Under the pieces are notes generated by a model. That model saw only the letters and a list, made by a program, of their open reading frames with translations, did not search any database and had not been told where the DNA came from. A DNA stretch of 47,085 bases. It comes from Candidatus Nomurabacteria bacterium RIFCSPLOWO2_01_FULL_39_18 (GTDB lineage: Bacteria > Patescibacteriota > Minisyncoccia > Phycocordibacterales > UBA9973). The stretch is from NCBI GenBank assembly GCA_001787005.1, contig MFUV01000013.1:483-47567 (forward strand). The letters run 5' to 3'. The translations under genes and the position numbers were made by a program. This document shows positions 35,676 to 47,067 of the stretch, one piece after another (within the stretch, counting starts at the first letter, position 1; the number at the start of each line of letters is the position of its first letter).

Positions 35676-36740
35676 ATGTTAAAGAAAAAAGAGAAGAAAG
35701 AAGATAAAACTGTGGGAATGGCAGTGCTCGAAGATACTTTGAAATCCATACAGACAAAATTCGGAGAAGGATCAATCATGAAATTCGGTGACTCTCCTAA
35801 AGTAGATGTCAATGTCATACCGACCGGCTCCATCGGACTAGATATGGCACTCGGAGTAGGTGGAATACCACGCGGTAGAATTATTGAAATATTTGGGCCT
35901 GAATCCTCCGGCAAGACTACGCTTTCGCTCCATATTGTGGGAGAAGCACAGAAACTCGGTGGAGTCTGCGCATATATAGATGCTGAACACGCAATGGACC
36001 CAGAATACACCAAGAAACTTGGAGTCAATATAAATAATTTACTTATTTCTCAACCGGACAACGGTGAACAAGCCCTTGAGATCGTGGAATCCTTAGTCCG
36101 CACTGGAAAGATTGACGTAATCGTCATTGATTCAGTTGCCGCATTAACTCCAAAGGATGAAATCGAGGGCGATATGGGGGCGTATCATGTGGGCAAGCAG
36201 GCCAGGCTGATGAGCCAAGCGCTCCGCAAGTTAACCGCGATAGTGGCGAGATCTAAAACTGTTGTTATCTTTATAAATCAGATTCGCATGCAAATCGGAG
36301 TAATGTTCGGCAACCCAGAGACTACTCCAGGCGGGAAAGCGCTGAAGTTTTATACCTCTGTACGATTGGACATCCGCAAAATTGCTCAAATTAAAAAGGG
36401 CGAAGAGGTGGTTGGTTCTCGCACCCGTGTAAAGATAGTAAAAAATAAAGTTGCCGCGCCGTTCAAGCAGACAGAGTTTGATATCATTTACAATGAGGGG
36501 ATTTCCAAAGAGGGGGAAATCATGGCACTCGGTGAGAAATTCAAAATTATTGAGAAAAGCGGAAATTCTTATTTTTTTGTACCCCCACCCGACCTCCCCC
36601 TTCTCAAGGGTGAGGAGAAGGTGGAAAAAACAAAATTGGGCGTGGGTTATGATTCTACTCGCACCTTCTTAAAAGAAAATAAGAAAATCTCGGATCAAAT
36701 ACTGAAAGAAATACGCAAAAAGTTTGCAGAGGAGGCGTAA
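35676..36740 (+). CDS. recA: Recombinase RecA, with an in-frame palindromic-repeat insertion near the C-terminus
   Basis: [45 protein letters not shown]...[21 protein letters not shown]. Confidence 0.97.
36579..36624 (+). repeat. Palindromic repeat, subfamily II, in recA coding sequence
   Basis: gtacccccacccgacctcccccttctcaagggtgaggagaaggtgg, aligning with 40161-40202 and with the reverse complements of 40566-40601 and 41548-41586. Confidence 0.8.
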
Positions 36741-36756: not shown

Positions 36757-36800
36757 CCACCTCACCCCTGCCCCTCTCCAGAGTACCAGAGAGGGGAAAA
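36757..36800 (+). repeat. Palindromic repeat, subfamily I, left flank of DUF559 gene 1
   Basis: ccacctcacccctgcccctctccagagtaccagagaggggaaaa; 8-bp stem cccctctc/gagagggg. Confidence 0.85.
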
Positions 36801-37157
36801 TCAAATACTAGAAAGTCCTTTTATTGTTCCTTTGATTTCATCTAAAACTTCATGTAAATCTTTTTCTACTTCAGAATTCCAAAACCTGATAACATTTATA
36901 TATTTAGATTTTAAATATTCTGTTCTCGCCTTATCATATTCTTTATTTTCTTTTTTATTATGTATAGATCCGTCCAATTCTATCGCGAGTTTTATGGAAG
37001 GAGCATAAAAATCCACAATAAACATATCTATTGGATGTTGCCTTCTCCACTTCACGCCAAGATTATTATTTCTAAGTTTCTTCCAAAGTATTTGCTCTGT
37101 TTTCGTAGTTTCCTTTCGCAAATATCTTGCTTTGATTATTGTTTTTAATTTAGCCAC
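36801..37157 (-). CDS. DUF559 domain protein (Vsr-fold endonuclease-like)
   Basis: TKTEQILWKKLRNNNLGVKWRRQHPIDMFIVDFYAPSIKLAIELDGSIHNKKENKEYDKARTEYLKSKYINVIRFWNSEV. Confidence 0.85.
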   Translation of the reverse strand: MAKLKTIIKARYLRKETTKTEQILWKKLRNNNLGVKWRRQHPIDMFIVDFYAPSIKLAIELDGSIHNKKENKEYDKARTEYLKSKYINVIRFWNSEVEKDLHEVLDEIKGTIKGLSSI

Positions 37158-37190
37158 TTATTAATAATATATCATTTTTAGTATTTCGCA

Positions 37191-37235
37191 TTTTCCCCTC
37201 GCCATTAATATGGAGAGGGGTTGGGGGTGAGGTTG
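37191..37235 (-). repeat. Palindromic repeat, subfamily I, right flank of DUF559 gene 1 (inverted)
   Basis: Reverse complement caacctcacccccaacccctctccatattaatggcgaggggaaaa aligns with 36757-36800. Confidence 0.85.
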
Positions 37236-37267: not shown

Positions 37268-37849
37268 ATGTCTCAACTGCAATACAACGAAATCCGCGAG
37301 AAGAAAATAATAATCCACGACGACGAGCCGTGCGAGGTGGTGGAAAGCCACGTCGCCCGCACCCAGCAGAGAAAACCGCAAAATCAGGTCAAGCTGAAGA
37401 GCCTGATCTCCGGCAAGACTATTTCAGCAACCTTCCATGTGTCAGAATCTGCCGATGAGGCGGACATTAATAAGAAAGAAGTAACTTTTCTGTATTCTAA
37501 TAGAGGAGAATATTGGTTCTGTGACCCAAACGACAAAAGCAACAGATTTAAATTGGACGTTGTTCTCATCGGTGAAGCTGCAAAATTTCTAAAACAAAAC
37601 AGCAACGTCACTGCCCTGGTCTGGTCCAATGACAACGAAGAAGAAAAAATCATTAAAATAACTCTGCCGATAAAAATGAATTTCAGAGTAAAAGAAGCTC
37701 CGCCGGCAGTTCGGGGAGACACTTCTAAGGGAGGAAACAAGGTTATAACTCTCGAAAATGGTACAACCCTAAACGCTCCGATGTTTATAAACGAAGGAGA
37801 CACCGTCAGCATCAATACTGAAAATGGAGAGTATGTGGAACGAGTCTAG
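37268..37849 (+). CDS. efp: Translation elongation factor P
   Basis: KIIIHDDEPCEVVESHVARTQQRKPQNQVKLKSLISGKTISATFHVSESADEADI...ENGTTLNAPMFINEGDTVSINTENGEYVERV. Confidence 0.93.
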   Translation: MSQLQYNEIREKKIIIHDDEPCEVVESHVARTQQRKPQNQVKLKSLISGKTISATFHVSESADEADINKKEVTFLYSNRGEYWFCDPNDKSNRFKLDVVLIGEAAKFLKQNSNVTALVWSNDNEEEKIIKITLPIKMNFRVKEAPPAVRGDTSKGGNKVITLENGTTLNAPMFINEGDTVSINTENGEYVERV

Positions 37850-37965
37850 ATTCCAGAAAACGTAACTTTTCGAAGGGGTTTCGAGGCTGACGAGCCGAGA
37901 ACTTCAGGATTTTTTAAGCTTCAAAAATCCGTACCGAAGAAAAGTTTATGTTTTCTGGAATTTCT
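37850..37965. repeat. Large hairpin element filling the efp/rpsR convergent gap
   Basis: attccagaaaacgtaacttttcg pairs with cgaagaaaagtttatgttttctggaat; inner ggattttt/aaaaatcc. Confidence 0.7.
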
Positions 37966-39185: not shown

Positions 39186-39230
39186 GGATTTGATACTAAC
39201 AAAAAAACCCTAGAAAGTAAAGTTAATATT

Positions 39231-39312
39231 ATTCCCCTCTTGAGGGGTGGCTAAAAGCCGGGGTGGATGCATTCCACCTCCCCCTGAAGGGGTACTCCTC
39301 AAGAGGAGAATT
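39231..39312. repeat. Back-to-back inverted pair of palindromic repeats (subfamily III), no internal gene
   Basis: attcccctcttgaggggtggctaaaagccggggtgga-tgcat-tccacctccccctgaaggggtactcctcaagaggagaat. Confidence 0.8.
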
Positions 39313-40150
39313 AAATCCCAAATATCCGTTTTGCATTCGCTATAATAGCCTCTCTGACTTCGTCCTCCGACAAGTTCTTGATCTCGGCAATTTTTTTGAC
39401 AATTTCCTTTACATAGGCAGGTTCATTTCTTTTACCTCTATGCGGCACAGGTGTCACGTATGGACAGTCTGTCTCGGACATAATCATATTGGGCGGAGTA
39501 TTTTTTATAACTTCGTCATAGTTATGAGTAAACGTAATGACTCCGGTGAAAGAAAGCGTGAAGCCAAAATCTAAAAATGCTTTCGCGTCTTCTGGACTGC
39601 CAGCGAAGAAATGTACGTCGCCTCTGACCTTGGAGTGTTGTTTTAAGATTTCTAAGCTATCTTTGTATGCACTTTTAGTTTTATCAGCGAGGTTATTGCG
39701 AATATGAAGCATTAGGGGAAGATCAAATTCATTCGCAAGTTCTATCTGCTCTATAAATGCTTCTTTCTGTTTTTCAATTGATTCCTCGTCCATTCGATAA
39801 TAATCGAGCCCGCATTCTCCTATCCCCACCACCTTCGGATCTTTTAAAAGTTCGCGATAGAATTCTTTGTCAAAAATCTCGCCGCGTGAGGCAAATTCCT
39901 GGCCACCTTTTCCCAATTCCTGAAGGTCATGATACGAAGCGCCAGTGTGGATGGGGTGAAGTCCGACGATCGCATAAACACCCTCTTTATATTGATTTGC
40001 CATCTCCACTGCCTTCTTTGAAGTATCCATTTGCGTACCGACGTTTATCATCCAGGTGTCATTCTCTAGCGCACGGGCAATCACCTCATCTTTGTCTTCG
40101 TCAAAAGCTTTAAAATTAACGTGGCTGTGTATGTCGATATATTTGGGCAT
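39311..40150 (-). CDS. tatD: TatD family metal-dependent hydrolase/DNase
   Basis: YIDIHSHVNFKAFDEDKDEVIARA...GLHPIHTG...VGIGECGLDYYRMDEESIEKQKEAFIEQIELA...SETDCPYVTPVPHRGKRNEPAYV. Confidence 0.94.
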   Translation of the reverse strand: MPKYIDIHSHVNFKAFDEDKDEVIARALENDTWMINVGTQMDTSKKAVEMANQYKEGVYAIVGLHPIHTGASYHDLQELGKGGQEFASRGEIFDKEFYRELLKDPKVVGIGECGLDYYRMDEESIEKQKEAFIEQIELANEFDLPLMLHIRNNLADKTKSAYKDSLEILKQHSKVRGDVHFFAGSPEDAKAFLDFGFTLSFTGVITFTHNYDEVIKNTPPNMIMSETDCPYVTPVPHRGKRNEPAYVKEIVKKIAEIKNLSEDEVREAIIANAKRIFGI

Positions 40151-40158
40151 GTTGTTTA

Positions 40159-40545
40159 TTATACCCCCACCTGACCTCCCCCTACATTAGGGCGAGGAAA
40201 AGTTTCTAACTCTTTTGTAATTCTTTTTAACACTTTATCCATATTAGCACTAACTTCCCTATTCCAAAAACGAAAAACTTTTATATCATTAAATGAAAGA
40301 TAATCATCTCGTTTTTTGTCATAATCTTTATTTTCTAAATGTTGAAAACCGTCCAGTTCAATAGCAATTCTTTTTTCTACACAATAAAAATCTAGAATAA
40401 AAGGACCCACAGAATATTGACGAGTAAACTTAAATCCCAATTTTTTTCTTCTCAAACTAGCCCAAAGAAGTTTTTCTTCGTTCGTTTCACCGTGACGCAA
40501 TTCTTTGCGTCTAGATTTTAATTTGGGATCGTTGTATATAAACAT
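40159..40545 (-). CDS. DUF559 domain protein (Vsr-fold endonuclease-like); 3' end of ORF lies in a palindromic repeat
   Basis: TNEEKLLWASLRRKKLGFKFTRQYSVGPFILDFYCVEKRIAIELDGFQHLENKDYDKKRDDYLSFNDIKVFRFWNREV; C-terminal RPNVGGGQVGV is repeat-encoded. Confidence 0.85.
   Translation of the reverse strand: MFIYNDPKLKSRRKELRHGETNEEKLLWASLRRKKLGFKFTRQYSVGPFILDFYCVEKRIAIELDGFQHLENKDYDKKRDDYLSFNDIKVFRFWNREVSANMDKVLKRITKELETFPRPNVGGGQVGV
40161..40202 (+). repeat. Palindromic repeat, subfamily II, left flank of DUF559 gene 2
   Basis: atacccccacctgacctccccctacattagggcgaggaaaag. Confidence 0.88.
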
Positions 40546-40563
40546 AAGATTTTTCTTTTCTTT

Positions 40564-40601
40564 GCCCTCACCCTATGTAGGGGGAGGTCAGGTGGGGGTA
40601 C
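40564..40601 (-). repeat. Palindromic repeat, subfamily II, right flank of DUF559 gene 2 (inverted)
   Basis: gccctcaccctatgtagggggaggtcaggtgggggtac; reverse complement matches 40161-40202 with a long exact core tacccccacctgacctccccctacat. Confidence 0.88.
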
Positions 40602-40605
40602 TGAT

Positions 40606-41535
40606 CTAAATTGAATTAACTCTCAACATTCTTTTTGCTATCCTAATAAATTTATTTATTTTACTAGGATTTCGATCGATTGACCATCTTAATTTATCAA
40701 AAGATATTAGCAACATAAGTTTTATGAGTTCTGGTTTAAGTAACCCAAATTGTTTTTGTGACATACCGTATCCTTTTATAAATTGATTGAATTCAAGATT
40801 GCTTGGTCTATGGGTTTCTATTTTACATCTTAATATGTGAGTAAAATCATAATGGGGAATGATGTGAACTTCGGCTGAACCCCAATCAAGTAAATTCACT
40901 TTCCCTGATTTCTCAACAAGCGTATTCCAAACAGAAATATCTCCGTGATTTAGTCCAAAAGTGTATTTTTCTTTTTTTATATTATTAAATATTTCTTTGA
41001 CTTTTTTTGATTGTTTTTGGGTCAGAACTTTCAGTTTTATTAGCTTGTCATTATTTTTTAGGCTTTTTATATTATAATTCACATATTTTTGCCAAGAACC
41101 TGTAAAGACACCCCGCTTTAGGTTAGTCAGGTTTTCTCCAAAACCAGAAACTTTCACTGAATGTATTAGTTTTGTATATTTACCAAGTTTATAGTATAGA
41201 TTTAATTTACTTTTTAATTTCTTGCCATTTTTACCTGAAACAAAGGTTTCAATCATATATGCTCTGCCCTGTGATTTACTCACATCAAGCACGCTGGGTC
41301 CCGGGATACCCACTTCTCTTGATTTTTCGATGCACCATTTTTCTTTTAAATAATTTTGATATGCTTTATATTCTTTATGGGGTAGACTAAGTTTTATAAC
41401 AATTTCTTTTTCTTTAGAAATTGCTAGAAAATTTTTGTTGTTACTTCCTCTGCCAATATGTTTGATTAAAATATTTTTAGAATTAAAAAACTTTTTAGCA
41501 ATCTCTAAAGCGATTTGGGTGTCTGATGATTTCAT
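40606..41535 (-). CDS. Aminoglycoside phosphotransferase/choline kinase-like protein
   Basis: FGLNHGDISVWNTLVEKSGKVNLLDWGSAEVHIIPHYDFTHIL (APH-like HGDxxxxN...DWG). ATG at 41535 chosen over the track's GTG inside the repeat. Confidence 0.75.
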   Translation of the reverse strand: MKSSDTQIALEIAKKFFNSKNILIKHIGRGSNNKNFLAISKEKEIVIKLSLPHKEYKAYQNYLKEKWCIEKSREVGIPGPSVLDVSKSQGRAYMIETFVSGKNGKKLKSKLNLYYKLGKYTKLIHSVKVSGFGENLTNLKRGVFTGSWQKYVNYNIKSLKNNDKLIKLKVLTQKQSKKVKEIFNNIKKEKYTFGLNHGDISVWNTLVEKSGKVNLLDWGSAEVHIIPHYDFTHILRCKIETHRPSNLEFNQFIKGYGMSQKQFGLLKPELIKLMLLISFDKLRWSIDRNPSKINKFIRIAKRMLRVNSI

Positions 41536-41547
41536 TTGATTGTATTT

Positions 41548-41586
41548 TGCCTTCACCCTATGTAGGGGGAGGGTTGGGTGGGGGTA
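41548..41586 (-). repeat. Palindromic repeat, subfamily II, abutting the metG stop codon
   Basis: ttgccttcaccctatgtagggggagggttgggtgggggta, same orientation as 40564-40601. Confidence 0.85.
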
Positions 41587-41588
41587 AT

Positions 41589-43073
41589 TTAATCTTTCCT
41601 CAAAAACAAAGGTTCCTTGGGTTTCTTGTTCTCTTTGATTAATTTTTGTATTTTTTCCGAAGTCTCAGGAAGAAATGGTGCGAGTTGTACAGACACATTG
41701 AAAAGCATTTTGACAAACTTTTGTATTAATTCTTTTCCCTTCTCTGGGTCTGTTTTTACCAACTTAAATGGTTCCAATCTTTGTATAAATTCGTCTATTT
41801 CGGAAATATTTCCCCAAACAATATCCATTCCGAGTTTTAAGTCAAAAGATTGTATTTGGGAAGAAACCATTGTATCAAACTTTAAATTCTTATCTTCAAT
41901 TATTACTGGTGCCTCTAAATTATCCTCTGCCATTTTCATCACACGACTTACCAAATTCCCCAAGCCATTCGCAAGATTTGCATTGTAAGCATCCTTGAAT
42001 CTCTCCATCGTAAAAGGGCTATCTTCAAAAGGGGAAATTTCACGCAAGAGGAAATATCGAAGCGCATCTGTGCCATATTCTTTCACAATTTCAACTGGAT
42101 TAATTACATTGCCTATAGATTTAGACATTTTTATTCCACCTTCGCCGGTAATGAAACCATGGTAGACAATGGTATCGGTTGTTGGCAGTCCCGCAGACAT
42201 AAGCATCCCCTGCCACATTACTGACTGGAATTTCACCATGTCTTTGCCGGCAGTCTGAACTTTTTCTCCCTTCATCCAAAACTTTTCAAAATCATTTACC
42301 TCATCCCGCCCCTCTCCTTGCAAAGGAGAGGGAGAAACACCAGACCAACCCAGAGTCGAAATATAATTAACAAAGGCATCAAACCAGACATACATAACCT
42401 GATTCTCGTCTCCTGGGATAGGAACCCCCCAAGAAAAGCGTGTTTTATTGCGAGAAATCGAGAAATCTTCCATGTCGTTCTCTACGAAATCCATCGCCTC
42501 CTTCCTGCGCCACTCTGGAATGATTACTTTTTCAGTAGAAAGATATTCTAATAATTTTTCTTTATATTTACTCAGCCTAAAAAAATAATTTTCTTCCTCA
42601 ACCACTTGTGGTGTTAAGGTGGGATGAAACTCGCATTTGCCATTCACTAAATCTTTTTTTGTAATGAACTTCTCGCATCCTACGCAGTACAGCCCTTTGT
42701 ACTTTTTTTTATAAATATCGCCTTTTGCCTCACATAGACGCCAAAATTCTTGCACAGCTTTAGTGTGCAGGGGGTCGGTCGTCCTGATAAAATTATCATT
42801 CGAAAGATTTAAGGTTTTTTTTAGATCTAAATAATTTTGCGCGTATTTGTCCACATAATCTTGCGTATCTTTTCCTTCTTTCTGGCTTGCCTCCCAAATT
42901 TTCTGACCATGCTCATCCGTACCCGTGCTGAAAAAGACATCTCTCCCCAGAAGGCGCTGATATCTCGCTATCGCGTCCGACTGCGCAAGTTCAAGCGCAA
43001 AACCAATATGTGGCTCTGCATTTACATAAGGAATTGTGGTAGTAATGTAAAAACTTTTTTTATTAGAACTCAT
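41589..43073 (-). CDS. metG: Methionyl-tRNA synthetase, with an in-frame palindromic-repeat insertion
   Basis: FYITTTIPYVNAEPHIGFALELAQSDAIARYQRLLGRDVFFSTGTDEHGQKI...GFITGEGGIKMSKSIGNVI. Confidence 0.96.
   Translation of the reverse strand: MSSNKKSFYITTTIPYVNAEPHIGFALELAQSDAIARYQRLLGRDVFFSTGTDEHGQKIWEASQKEGKDTQDYVDKYAQNYLDLKKTLNLSNDNFIRTTDPLHTKAVQEFWRLCEAKGDIYKKKYKGLYCVGCEKFITKKDLVNGKCEFHPTLTPQVVEEENYFFRLSKYKEKLLEYLSTEKVIIPEWRRKEAMDFVENDMEDFSISRNKTRFSWGVPIPGDENQVMYVWFDAFVNYISTLGWSGVSPSPLQGEGRDEVNDFEKFWMKGEKVQTAGKDMVKFQSVMWQGMLMSAGLPTTDTIVYHGFITGEGGIKMSKSIGNVINPVEIVKEYGTDALRYFLLREISPFEDSPFTMERFKDAYNANLANGLGNLVSRVMKMAEDNLEAPVIIEDKNLKFDTMVSSQIQSFDLKLGMDIVWGNISEIDEFIQRLEPFKLVKTDPEKGKELIQKFVKMLFNVSVQLAPFLPETSEKIQKLIKENKKPKEPLFLRKD
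42298..42341 (+). repeat. Palindromic repeat, subfamily I-like, in metG coding sequence
   Basis: acctcatcccgcccctctccttgcaaaggagagggagaaacacc; 10-bp stem ccctctcctt/aaggagaggg; encodes GVSPSPLQGEGRDEV on the minus strand. Confidence 0.85.
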
Positions 43074-47009: not shown

Positions 47010-47067
47010 CACCCCCTCCGCCTTTGGCACCTCCCCCTTAGCTAAGGGGGAGGCTGGCTAGGGGTAC
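47010..47067. repeat. GC-rich palindromic repeat with a 24-nt perfect palindrome core
   Basis: gcaccccctccgcctttggcacctcccccttagctaagggggaggctggctaggggtacc; core cctcccccttagctaagggggagg (47030-47053). Confidence 0.8.

What the first reader, a model, noticed from the sequence alone, without database searches (positions are those of the whole stretch)
36757..37235. Cassette 1: DUF559 gene precisely framed by inverted subfamily I repeats between recA and efp
Left copy ccacctcacccctgcccctctcc...gaggggaaaa ends at 36800, and the DUF559 TGA stop (TCA on plus) begins at 36801. The right copy is the same unit inverted (ttttcccctcgcc...ggagaggggttgggggtgaggttg). Both have the purine-rich end inward and the CACCTCACCCC end outward, so the whole block looks like a unit with terminal inverted repeats. 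It starts 17 nt after the recA stop.
Basis: seen in the sequence. Interest (0 to 1): 0.72.

Follow-up and report, generated by a model that had tools for sequence, protein, structure and literature searches.

The report
Nuclease gene framed by BoxC-type repeats
A tiny gene for a Vsr-like DNA-cutting enzyme sits between two inverted hairpin repeats and behaves like a miniature mobile element; the same enzyme-repeat partnership recurs across many bacterial phyla and may explain how a puzzling class of repeats (E. coli BoxC, 'triplex motifs') spreads.

Summary
In detail: a 118-aa DUF559 nuclease gene (36801-37157, minus strand) is framed by two inverted repeats between recA and efp. Each repeat has an inner hairpin plus an outer G-rich block that mirrors the purine arm. 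That is the architecture of the known BoxC/PIT/'intrastrand triplex motif' (TM), whose spread is unexplained.

My structural TM scanner finds 7 TMs in the window and none in Markov controls; two frame cassette 1, two frame a second DUF559 cassette with a different TM subfamily. TM density is about 100 times higher within 100 bp of small DUF559 genes than 1.6-2.4 kb away. Across 380 genomes of the phylum, 46 of 49 with a TM pattern encode DUF559 (101/380 overall; Fisher p = 3e-27). DUF559 phylogeny follows TM subfamily (11 changes versus 28 shuffled). The recA-efp and metG-tatD junctions are empty, occupied, or hold repeats without the gene in relatives; different subfamilies hit the same slot. 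The link extends to Deinococcus, Spirochaetes, Chloroflexi, Proteobacteria (E. coli ycjD).

Best explanation: a REP/RAYT-like mobile unit in which a Vsr/EDxHD-fold nuclease processes its cognate TM. Mobility is inferred from comparative genomics; cleavage and transposition are untested.

The parts
36757..36800 (-). Left terminal repeat of cassette 1 (TM subfamily I): hairpin inside, G-rich mirror block outward
   Evidence: single-strand fold -8.9 kcal/mol, z -3.0
36801..37157 (-). DUF559 gene (118 aa), Vsr/EDxHD-fold nuclease with intact conserved residues E20, D48, E59, H65, D74 (alignment numbering without the initial residue)
   Evidence: Pfam E 2.5e-32; alignment of 41; model pLDDT 90; Foldseek 3hrl, 3r3p, Vsr
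37191..37235 (+). Right terminal repeat of cassette 1 (TM I, inverted)
   Evidence: fold -10.1 kcal/mol, z -5.0
36580..36615 (-). TM read in frame inside the recA ORF (peptide [13 protein letters not shown]); absent from most relatives
40160..40202 (-). Left terminal repeat of cassette 2 (TM subfamily II)
40159..40545 (-). Second DUF559 gene, 40% identical to the first in the alignment; its listed 3' end runs into the left repeat
40560..40602 (+). Right terminal repeat of cassette 2 (TM II, inverted)
40606..41556 (-). APH/kinase-like gene between cassette 2 and a third TM II copy; possible passenger
   Evidence: PF01636 E 1e-9
41550..41586 (+). Third TM II-like copy, next to the metG stop
   Evidence: read directly; below the scanner's threshold
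42297..42333 (-). TM read in frame inside metG (GVSPSPLQGEGRDE), absent from most relatives
47030..47066 (+). TM at the 3' end of a third DUF559 gene that runs past the window end (G000:C13:47577-47858)

Best explanation
Cassette 1 is a minimal mobile genetic unit: one small Vsr/EDxHD-fold nuclease gene (DUF559) between two inverted copies of a BoxC/triplex-motif (TM) repeat. The nuclease most likely recognises its own TM subfamily when the repeat is single-stranded or extruded as a hairpin (for example at a replication fork), nicks there, and so lets the unit, or TMs without the gene, be copied or moved to new sites, as RAYT transposases do for REP/REPIN sequences. Shown here: the framing, the cognate pairing of nuclease clade and repeat subfamily, the genome-level dependence of TMs on DUF559, the empty/occupied/gene-less alleles, and recurrent occupation of the same slots by different subfamilies. 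Inferred: that DUF559 is the enzyme that moves TMs, and the nick-and-copy chemistry.
For: Framing: own two ends resemble each other far more than other cassettes' ends (0.62 vs 0.34 permuted, p = 1e-4); 78 of 108 small DUF559 genes have a TM within 200 bp, 45 on both sides; TM density 4.8/kb within 100 bp vs 0.045/kb at 1.6-2.4 kb; 0 of 7 large fused DUF559 genes in the genus set have one. Dependence: 46/49 TM-pattern genomes have DUF559, p = 2.9e-27; 17 of 19 families, p = 1.6e-7; all 20 DUF559 loci taken from genomes without that exact pattern still have a TM, 13 standard and 7 with a hairpin in the second loop. Cognate pairing: DUF559 tree vs TM subfamily 11 changes, shuffled mean 27.9, 0 of 200 as low; the window's genome alone holds copies from several clades. 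Alleles: recA-efp and metG-tatD (1-50 bp in 19 of 30, filled in others, TM pair without gene in G069); Deinococcus hpa operon with insertions at different junctions and clean empties. Fold: Vsr and I-Bth0305I relatives.
Against: No excision, cleavage or transposition has been observed. No clear target-site duplication could be mapped, because available relatives are too divergent. End orientation is not uniform: tail-out in this genus (19 of 25) and Deinococcus, often tail-in elsewhere. Three TM-positive genomes lack a detectable DUF559. A DUF559 protein of Caulobacter (VsrA) is proposed to act in mismatch repair (PMC12907096). TMs also bound at least one other gene (40606-41556).
Confidence: 0.68

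Rival explanations
1. Homing-like spread: DUF559 cuts genomes or sites lacking the unit (perhaps at a solo TM) and recombination repair copies the TM-flanked gene in. The TMs are cut sites and homology arms, not transposon ends.
For: The fold and the order of invariant residues match the EDxHD homing endonuclease I-Bth0305I (family in PMC3943268). The same slots (recA-efp, metG-tatD) are reoccupied, and different subfamilies replace each other there.
Against: DUF559 here is a bare 118-aa catalytic domain without the DNA-binding tethers of EDxHD homing enzymes. Units occur at many unrelated sites, and full inverted repeats, not split halves of one site, frame the gene.
Confidence: 0.17
2. DUF559 is a host repair nuclease (Vsr-like mismatch or non-B DNA processing). 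TMs near its gene are autoregulatory or are the structures it polices; the framing is not mobility.
For: A Caulobacter DUF559 protein causes a DNA-damage response when a cytosine methyltransferase is deleted (PMC12907096); YcjD is related to Vsr (PMC1189080); TMs form triplexes in vitro (PMC4666352).
Against: Patchy presence, several divergent copies per genome, empty sites, gene-less paired TMs, truncated DUF559 in D. wulumuqiensis, and no conserved position.
Confidence: 0.1
3. DUF559 is passenger cargo: TMs are moved by another enzyme and merely happen to capture DUF559.
For: A kinase-like gene is also bounded by TM II copies in the window.
Against: TMs almost never occur without DUF559 (46/49), and DUF559 clade predicts TM subfamily. 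No other gene was seen to recur between paired TMs in the loci read.
Confidence: 0.05

Closest known systems
BoxC / PIT / intrastrand triplex motif repeats (Holder et al. 2015, PMC4666352; Maher and colleagues cited there)
   Same: Hairpin with a purine arm plus a mirror third block; intergenic; inverted pairs; wide spread (E. coli, cyanobacteria, Neisseria).
   Different: [quoted passage not shown] here tied to DUF559, in a Patescibacteria genome, framing the gene, and also inside coding sequence.
REP / REPIN with RAYT (TnpA-REP) transposase (PMC2817692, PMC3116915)
   Same: Enzyme gene flanked by inverted short palindromes, gene-less paired and solo copies, subfamily-specific pairing (own knowledge plus abstracts).
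   Different: RAYT is an HUH Y1 tyrosine transposase and REPs carry GTAG-type tags; here the enzyme is a PD-(D/E)XK/Vsr-like nuclease and the repeat carries a triplex-type third block.
EDxHD homing endonuclease I-Bth0305I (3r3p)
   Same: Catalytic fold and residue order; a mobility-driving nuclease.
   Different: Intron-encoded, multi-domain, long target; no terminal inverted repeats.
E. coli YcjD and N. gonorrhoeae NGO0050 (3hrl)
   Same: Same DUF559 family; both loci carry TMs nearby.
   Different: Function unassigned in the literature read; the E. coli locus alternates with the eef operon rather than with an empty site (PMC12817139).
Rickettsia palindromic elements (from memory)
   Same: In-frame insertion of a palindromic repeat into protein genes (recA, metG here).
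   Different: Unrelated sequence as far as I recall; a lead only, not tested.

Membership tests
DUF559 (PF04480) | Match above the curated cut-off | tested here: met
   111.4 bits vs 20.6, E 2.5e-32
Vsr/EDxHD-type PD-(D/E)XK nuclease | Fold and conserved acidic/His residues | tested here: met
   Invariant E20, D48, E59, D61, H65, D74; model matches 3hrl, 3r3p, 1vsr
Vsr/EDxHD-type PD-(D/E)XK nuclease | Mg-dependent DNA cleavage | not testable with these tools
   Needs protein
BoxC / intrastrand triplex motif | Pyrimidine arm, loop, purine arm, loop, mirror third block | tested here: met
   Scanner hits at 36761-36796 and 37195-37234; 0 in controls
BoxC / intrastrand triplex motif | Forms a triplex in vitro | not testable with these tools
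   Shown for the E. coli motif in PMC4666352, not for this one
BoxC / intrastrand triplex motif | Many copies per genome | tested here: inconclusive
   118 pattern matches in G285 but 2 in the window's genome; other subfamilies not counted genome-wide
REP-RAYT system | HUH Y1 tyrosine transposase | tested here: not met
   Protein is DUF559 with a Vsr-like fold
REP-RAYT system | Gene flanked by inverted palindromic repeats | tested here: met
REP-RAYT system | GTAG/CGTC-type tag at the repeat foot | tested here: not met
   Tail is CACCTCACCCC; tag definition from the title and abstract of PMC3733652
DDE insertion sequence | DDE transposase encoded by the element | tested here: not met
   Only DUF559 in the element
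DDE insertion sequence | Target-site duplication | tested here: inconclusive
   Relatives too divergent to resolve junctions
Homing endonuclease gene | Cuts the allele lacking the element | not testable with these tools
   Needs assay

The most novel reading that the evidence does not exclude
DUF559-TM units are a widespread, undescribed class of bacterial mobile element in which a single Vsr-like nuclease moves itself and its triplex-motif ends by a mechanism unlike DDE, HUH, serine or tyrosine recombinases. They are the source of the BoxC/PIT/TM repeats found across bacteria, including those of E. coli, Neisseria and cyanobacteria.
Probability: 0.45. Interest if true: 0.93.

Novelty: new variant of a known kind. 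Interest (0 to 1): 0.82.

Why it matters
BoxC/TM repeats have been known since the 1990s and occur in hundreds of genomes, with no known function and no known agent of spread; the 2015 survey explicitly found none. A nuclease gene family that co-occurs with them, flanks itself with them and co-varies with their subfamilies turns an open question into a testable enzyme-substrate hypothesis. It also suggests a function for DUF559/YcjD, adds a nuclease-only type of REP-like selfish unit, and would explain some genome plasticity and in-frame protein insertions in minimal Patescibacteria genomes.

Tried and rejected
The first genome-contig scan with the diverse alignment A1 failed; a tighter alignment A2 worked. 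E. coli was tried for clean empty sites: the ycjD region is covered in 3,365 of 5,426 genomes, but the alternative allele read is the eef operon, so it is a swap. Azospirillum and Picosynechococcus plasmids gave no close strain without the unit. Terminator/promoter function was set aside: earlier work found none for these motifs (PMC4666352), and TMs lie on both sides of the gene. A conserved mismatch in the hairpin stem (T.G, A.G, G.A) was considered as the nuclease's cue: present in 31 of 61 genus ends but 10 of 62 elsewhere, and the scanner biases the count, so it stays a lead. Target-site duplications could not be mapped. PADLOC and PHROG gave only weak homing/HNH/restriction-type matches; no defence role is argued. 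The all-ORF control was contaminated by ORFs beside DUF559 and was replaced by the distance profile.

Full report
WHAT IS THERE. The window lies in an 813-kb Patescibacteria-type genome (named relatives of the same DUF559 include 'Candidatus Nomurabacteria'). Between recA (35676-36740) and efp (37268-37849) sits a 118-aa DUF559 gene on the minus strand, 36801-37157 (PF04480, E 2.5e-32). It is framed by inverted repeats at 36757-36800 and 37191-37235. Each repeat, read on its G-rich strand, is: pyrimidine arm, loop, purine arm, short loop, and a third G-rich block that mirrors the purine arm. The hairpin points inward and the third block outward. Single strands of both fold better than shuffled sequence (z -3.0 and -5.0).

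WHAT THE REPEAT IS. This is the architecture called BoxC, PIT element or G/C-rich intrastrand triplex motif (TM) in Holder et al. 2015 (PMC4666352). That paper reports the motif in more than 260 genomes and 23 copies in E. coli K-12, ten of them as five inverted pairs; it cites work that found no promoter or terminator role and states that no transposase or integrase was ever found nearby. A scanner for the architecture, not for a fixed sequence, gives 7 hits in the 47-kb window and none in three Markov controls. Four of the seven are the four ends of two DUF559 cassettes: cassette 1, and cassette 2 at 40159-40602, whose repeats are a different subfamily.

DUF559 AND TM GO TOGETHER. In the genus set 32 of 45 small DUF559 genes have a TM within 400 bp, 20 on both sides, and none of 7 large fused DUF559 genes does. 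Over 108 small DUF559 genes from many phyla, 78 have a TM within 200 bp and 45 on both sides. TM density falls from 4.8 per kb within 100 bp to 0.045 per kb at 1.6-2.4 kb; these loci were chosen for DUF559, so the internal distance comparison is the control. In 380 genomes drawn from the phylum a gapped TM pattern occurs in 49, of which 46 have DUF559, against 55 of the other 331 (Fisher p 2.9e-27; by family 17 of 19, p 1.6e-7, total families estimated; reversed pattern 0 in all). Twenty DUF559 loci from genomes without that exact pattern all have a TM, 13 of the standard kind and 7 with a small hairpin in the second loop. Named examples include Spirochaetes (L116, L135), Zixibacteria (L162), Kuenenia (L152), Methylobacter (L148), Acinetobacter (L154), Deinococcus (L088, L205, L212) and E. 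coli ycjD (L083). Some loci scored as 'none' by the scanner show longer-stemmed or hairpin-looped versions by eye.

COGNATE PAIRS. The two ends of one cassette resemble each other more than ends of other cassettes (0.62 vs 0.34; permutation p 1e-4). The DUF559 tree groups by TM subfamily: 11 changes where 9 is the minimum and shuffles average 27.9 (0 of 200 as low). Subfamily labels were assigned by me from the repeats alone, by eye. One genome carries several clades: the window's has copies labelled I, II, IV, VI and VII. Enzyme and repeat therefore travel as a unit.

MOBILITY. At recA-efp, 3 of 30 loci carry the unit, at least 11 have a 16-62 bp gap without it, and G014 has repeats without the gene. 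In the tree the window copy groups with G025's copy at another locus (support 97/91) rather than with G025's recA-site copy; a single clade of recA-site copies is rejected at p-AU 0.022, which is modest. At metG-tatD the gap is 1-50 bp in 19 of 30 genomes. It is filled by units of subfamily II (window, G020, G023, G103), III (G001), IV (G013) and VII (G029), and in G069 by two inverted TM II copies with no gene; one clade for these is rejected at p-AU 2.6e-5. In the Deinococcus hpa operon units sit at different gene junctions in different species, while D. deserti, D. ficus, D. radiophilus and D. radiodurans have none in the stretch read; D. wulumuqiensis has a truncated DUF559. TMs also sit in frame inside recA and metG, in loops where most relatives have no insert.

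ENZYME. The 41-sequence alignment has invariant E20, D48, E59, D61, H65 and D74. The AlphaFold model (pLDDT 90, pTM 0.83) matches NGO0050 (3hrl), the EDxHD homing endonuclease I-Bth0305I (3r3p) and Vsr; sequence profiles agree (3hrl E 3e-31, 3r3p E 1e-4). YcjD was placed near Vsr in 2005 (PMC1189080). A Caulobacter DUF559 protein triggers a DNA-damage response in a methyltransferase mutant (PMC12907096), which suggests such proteins cut DNA in vivo.

HOW IT MOST LIKELY WORKS. The facts fit a REP/RAYT-like partnership with a different enzyme class. The nuclease recognises its own TM, probably as an extruded or single-stranded hairpin, and nicks; repair or strand transfer then places a copy elsewhere. 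Units that lose the gene remain as TM pairs or solo TMs and can multiply (118 matches in G285, some as tail-out inverted pairs about 16 bp apart; arrays behind the Photobacterium gene). Steps shown: framing, pairing, dependence, presence/absence. Steps inferred: recognition, cleavage, transfer. A homing-type mechanism is the main rival. Membership in REP-RAYT is not met (no HUH transposase, no GTAG tag); it works like that system without belonging to it.

NOVELTY. Searches of open papers found none that joins DUF559 with inverted repeats, BoxC or triplex motifs; subscription papers are not covered. The parts are known; the partnership, as far as I can tell, is not.

Noticed in passing
window 37849-37961: A different intergenic repeat (GAAGGGGTTTCGAG...GAACTTCAGGATTTTTT.GCTTCAAAAATCCGTACCG) framed by an inverted TTCCAGAAAAC / GTTTTCTGGAA; similar blocks with different ends follow recA in relatives (L064, L069).
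   Followed up: no
window 36580-36615 and 42297-42333: TM repeats read in frame inside recA and metG; several relatives carry other TM-like read-through peptides in the same protein loops.
   Followed up: partly
window 39221-39315: Another C-rich hairpin pair (cccctcttgaggggtggctaaaagccggggtgga ... ccacctccccctgaaggggtactcctcaagagg) beside tatD, of the kind seen in L079 after recA; no gene inside.
   Followed up: no
window 40606-41586: APH/kinase-like gene bounded by TM II copies on both sides, next to cassette 2; possible passenger or composite.
   Followed up: partly
G007:C4 and G092:C6 (recA): RecA matches split at residue 211-212 inside 735-739-aa open frames, which looks like an intein.
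   Followed up: no
L089:2852-4436 (Photobacterium sp. GJ3): Array of about 15 alternating TMs directly downstream of a DUF559 gene, BIME-like.
   Followed up: no
TM hairpin stems of DUF559 cassettes in the genus (window 36757-36800, 37191-37235 and relatives): Single stem mismatches are nearly always T.G, A.G or G.A, often right after CTC; subfamily I ends often differ (T.G at the 3' end, G.A at the 5' end).
   Followed up: partly
E. coli sapF-fabI (L170 vs L171-L174): ycjD with its TM alternates with the eef efflux operon; the eef alleles have no TM in the stretch read.
   Followed up: partly
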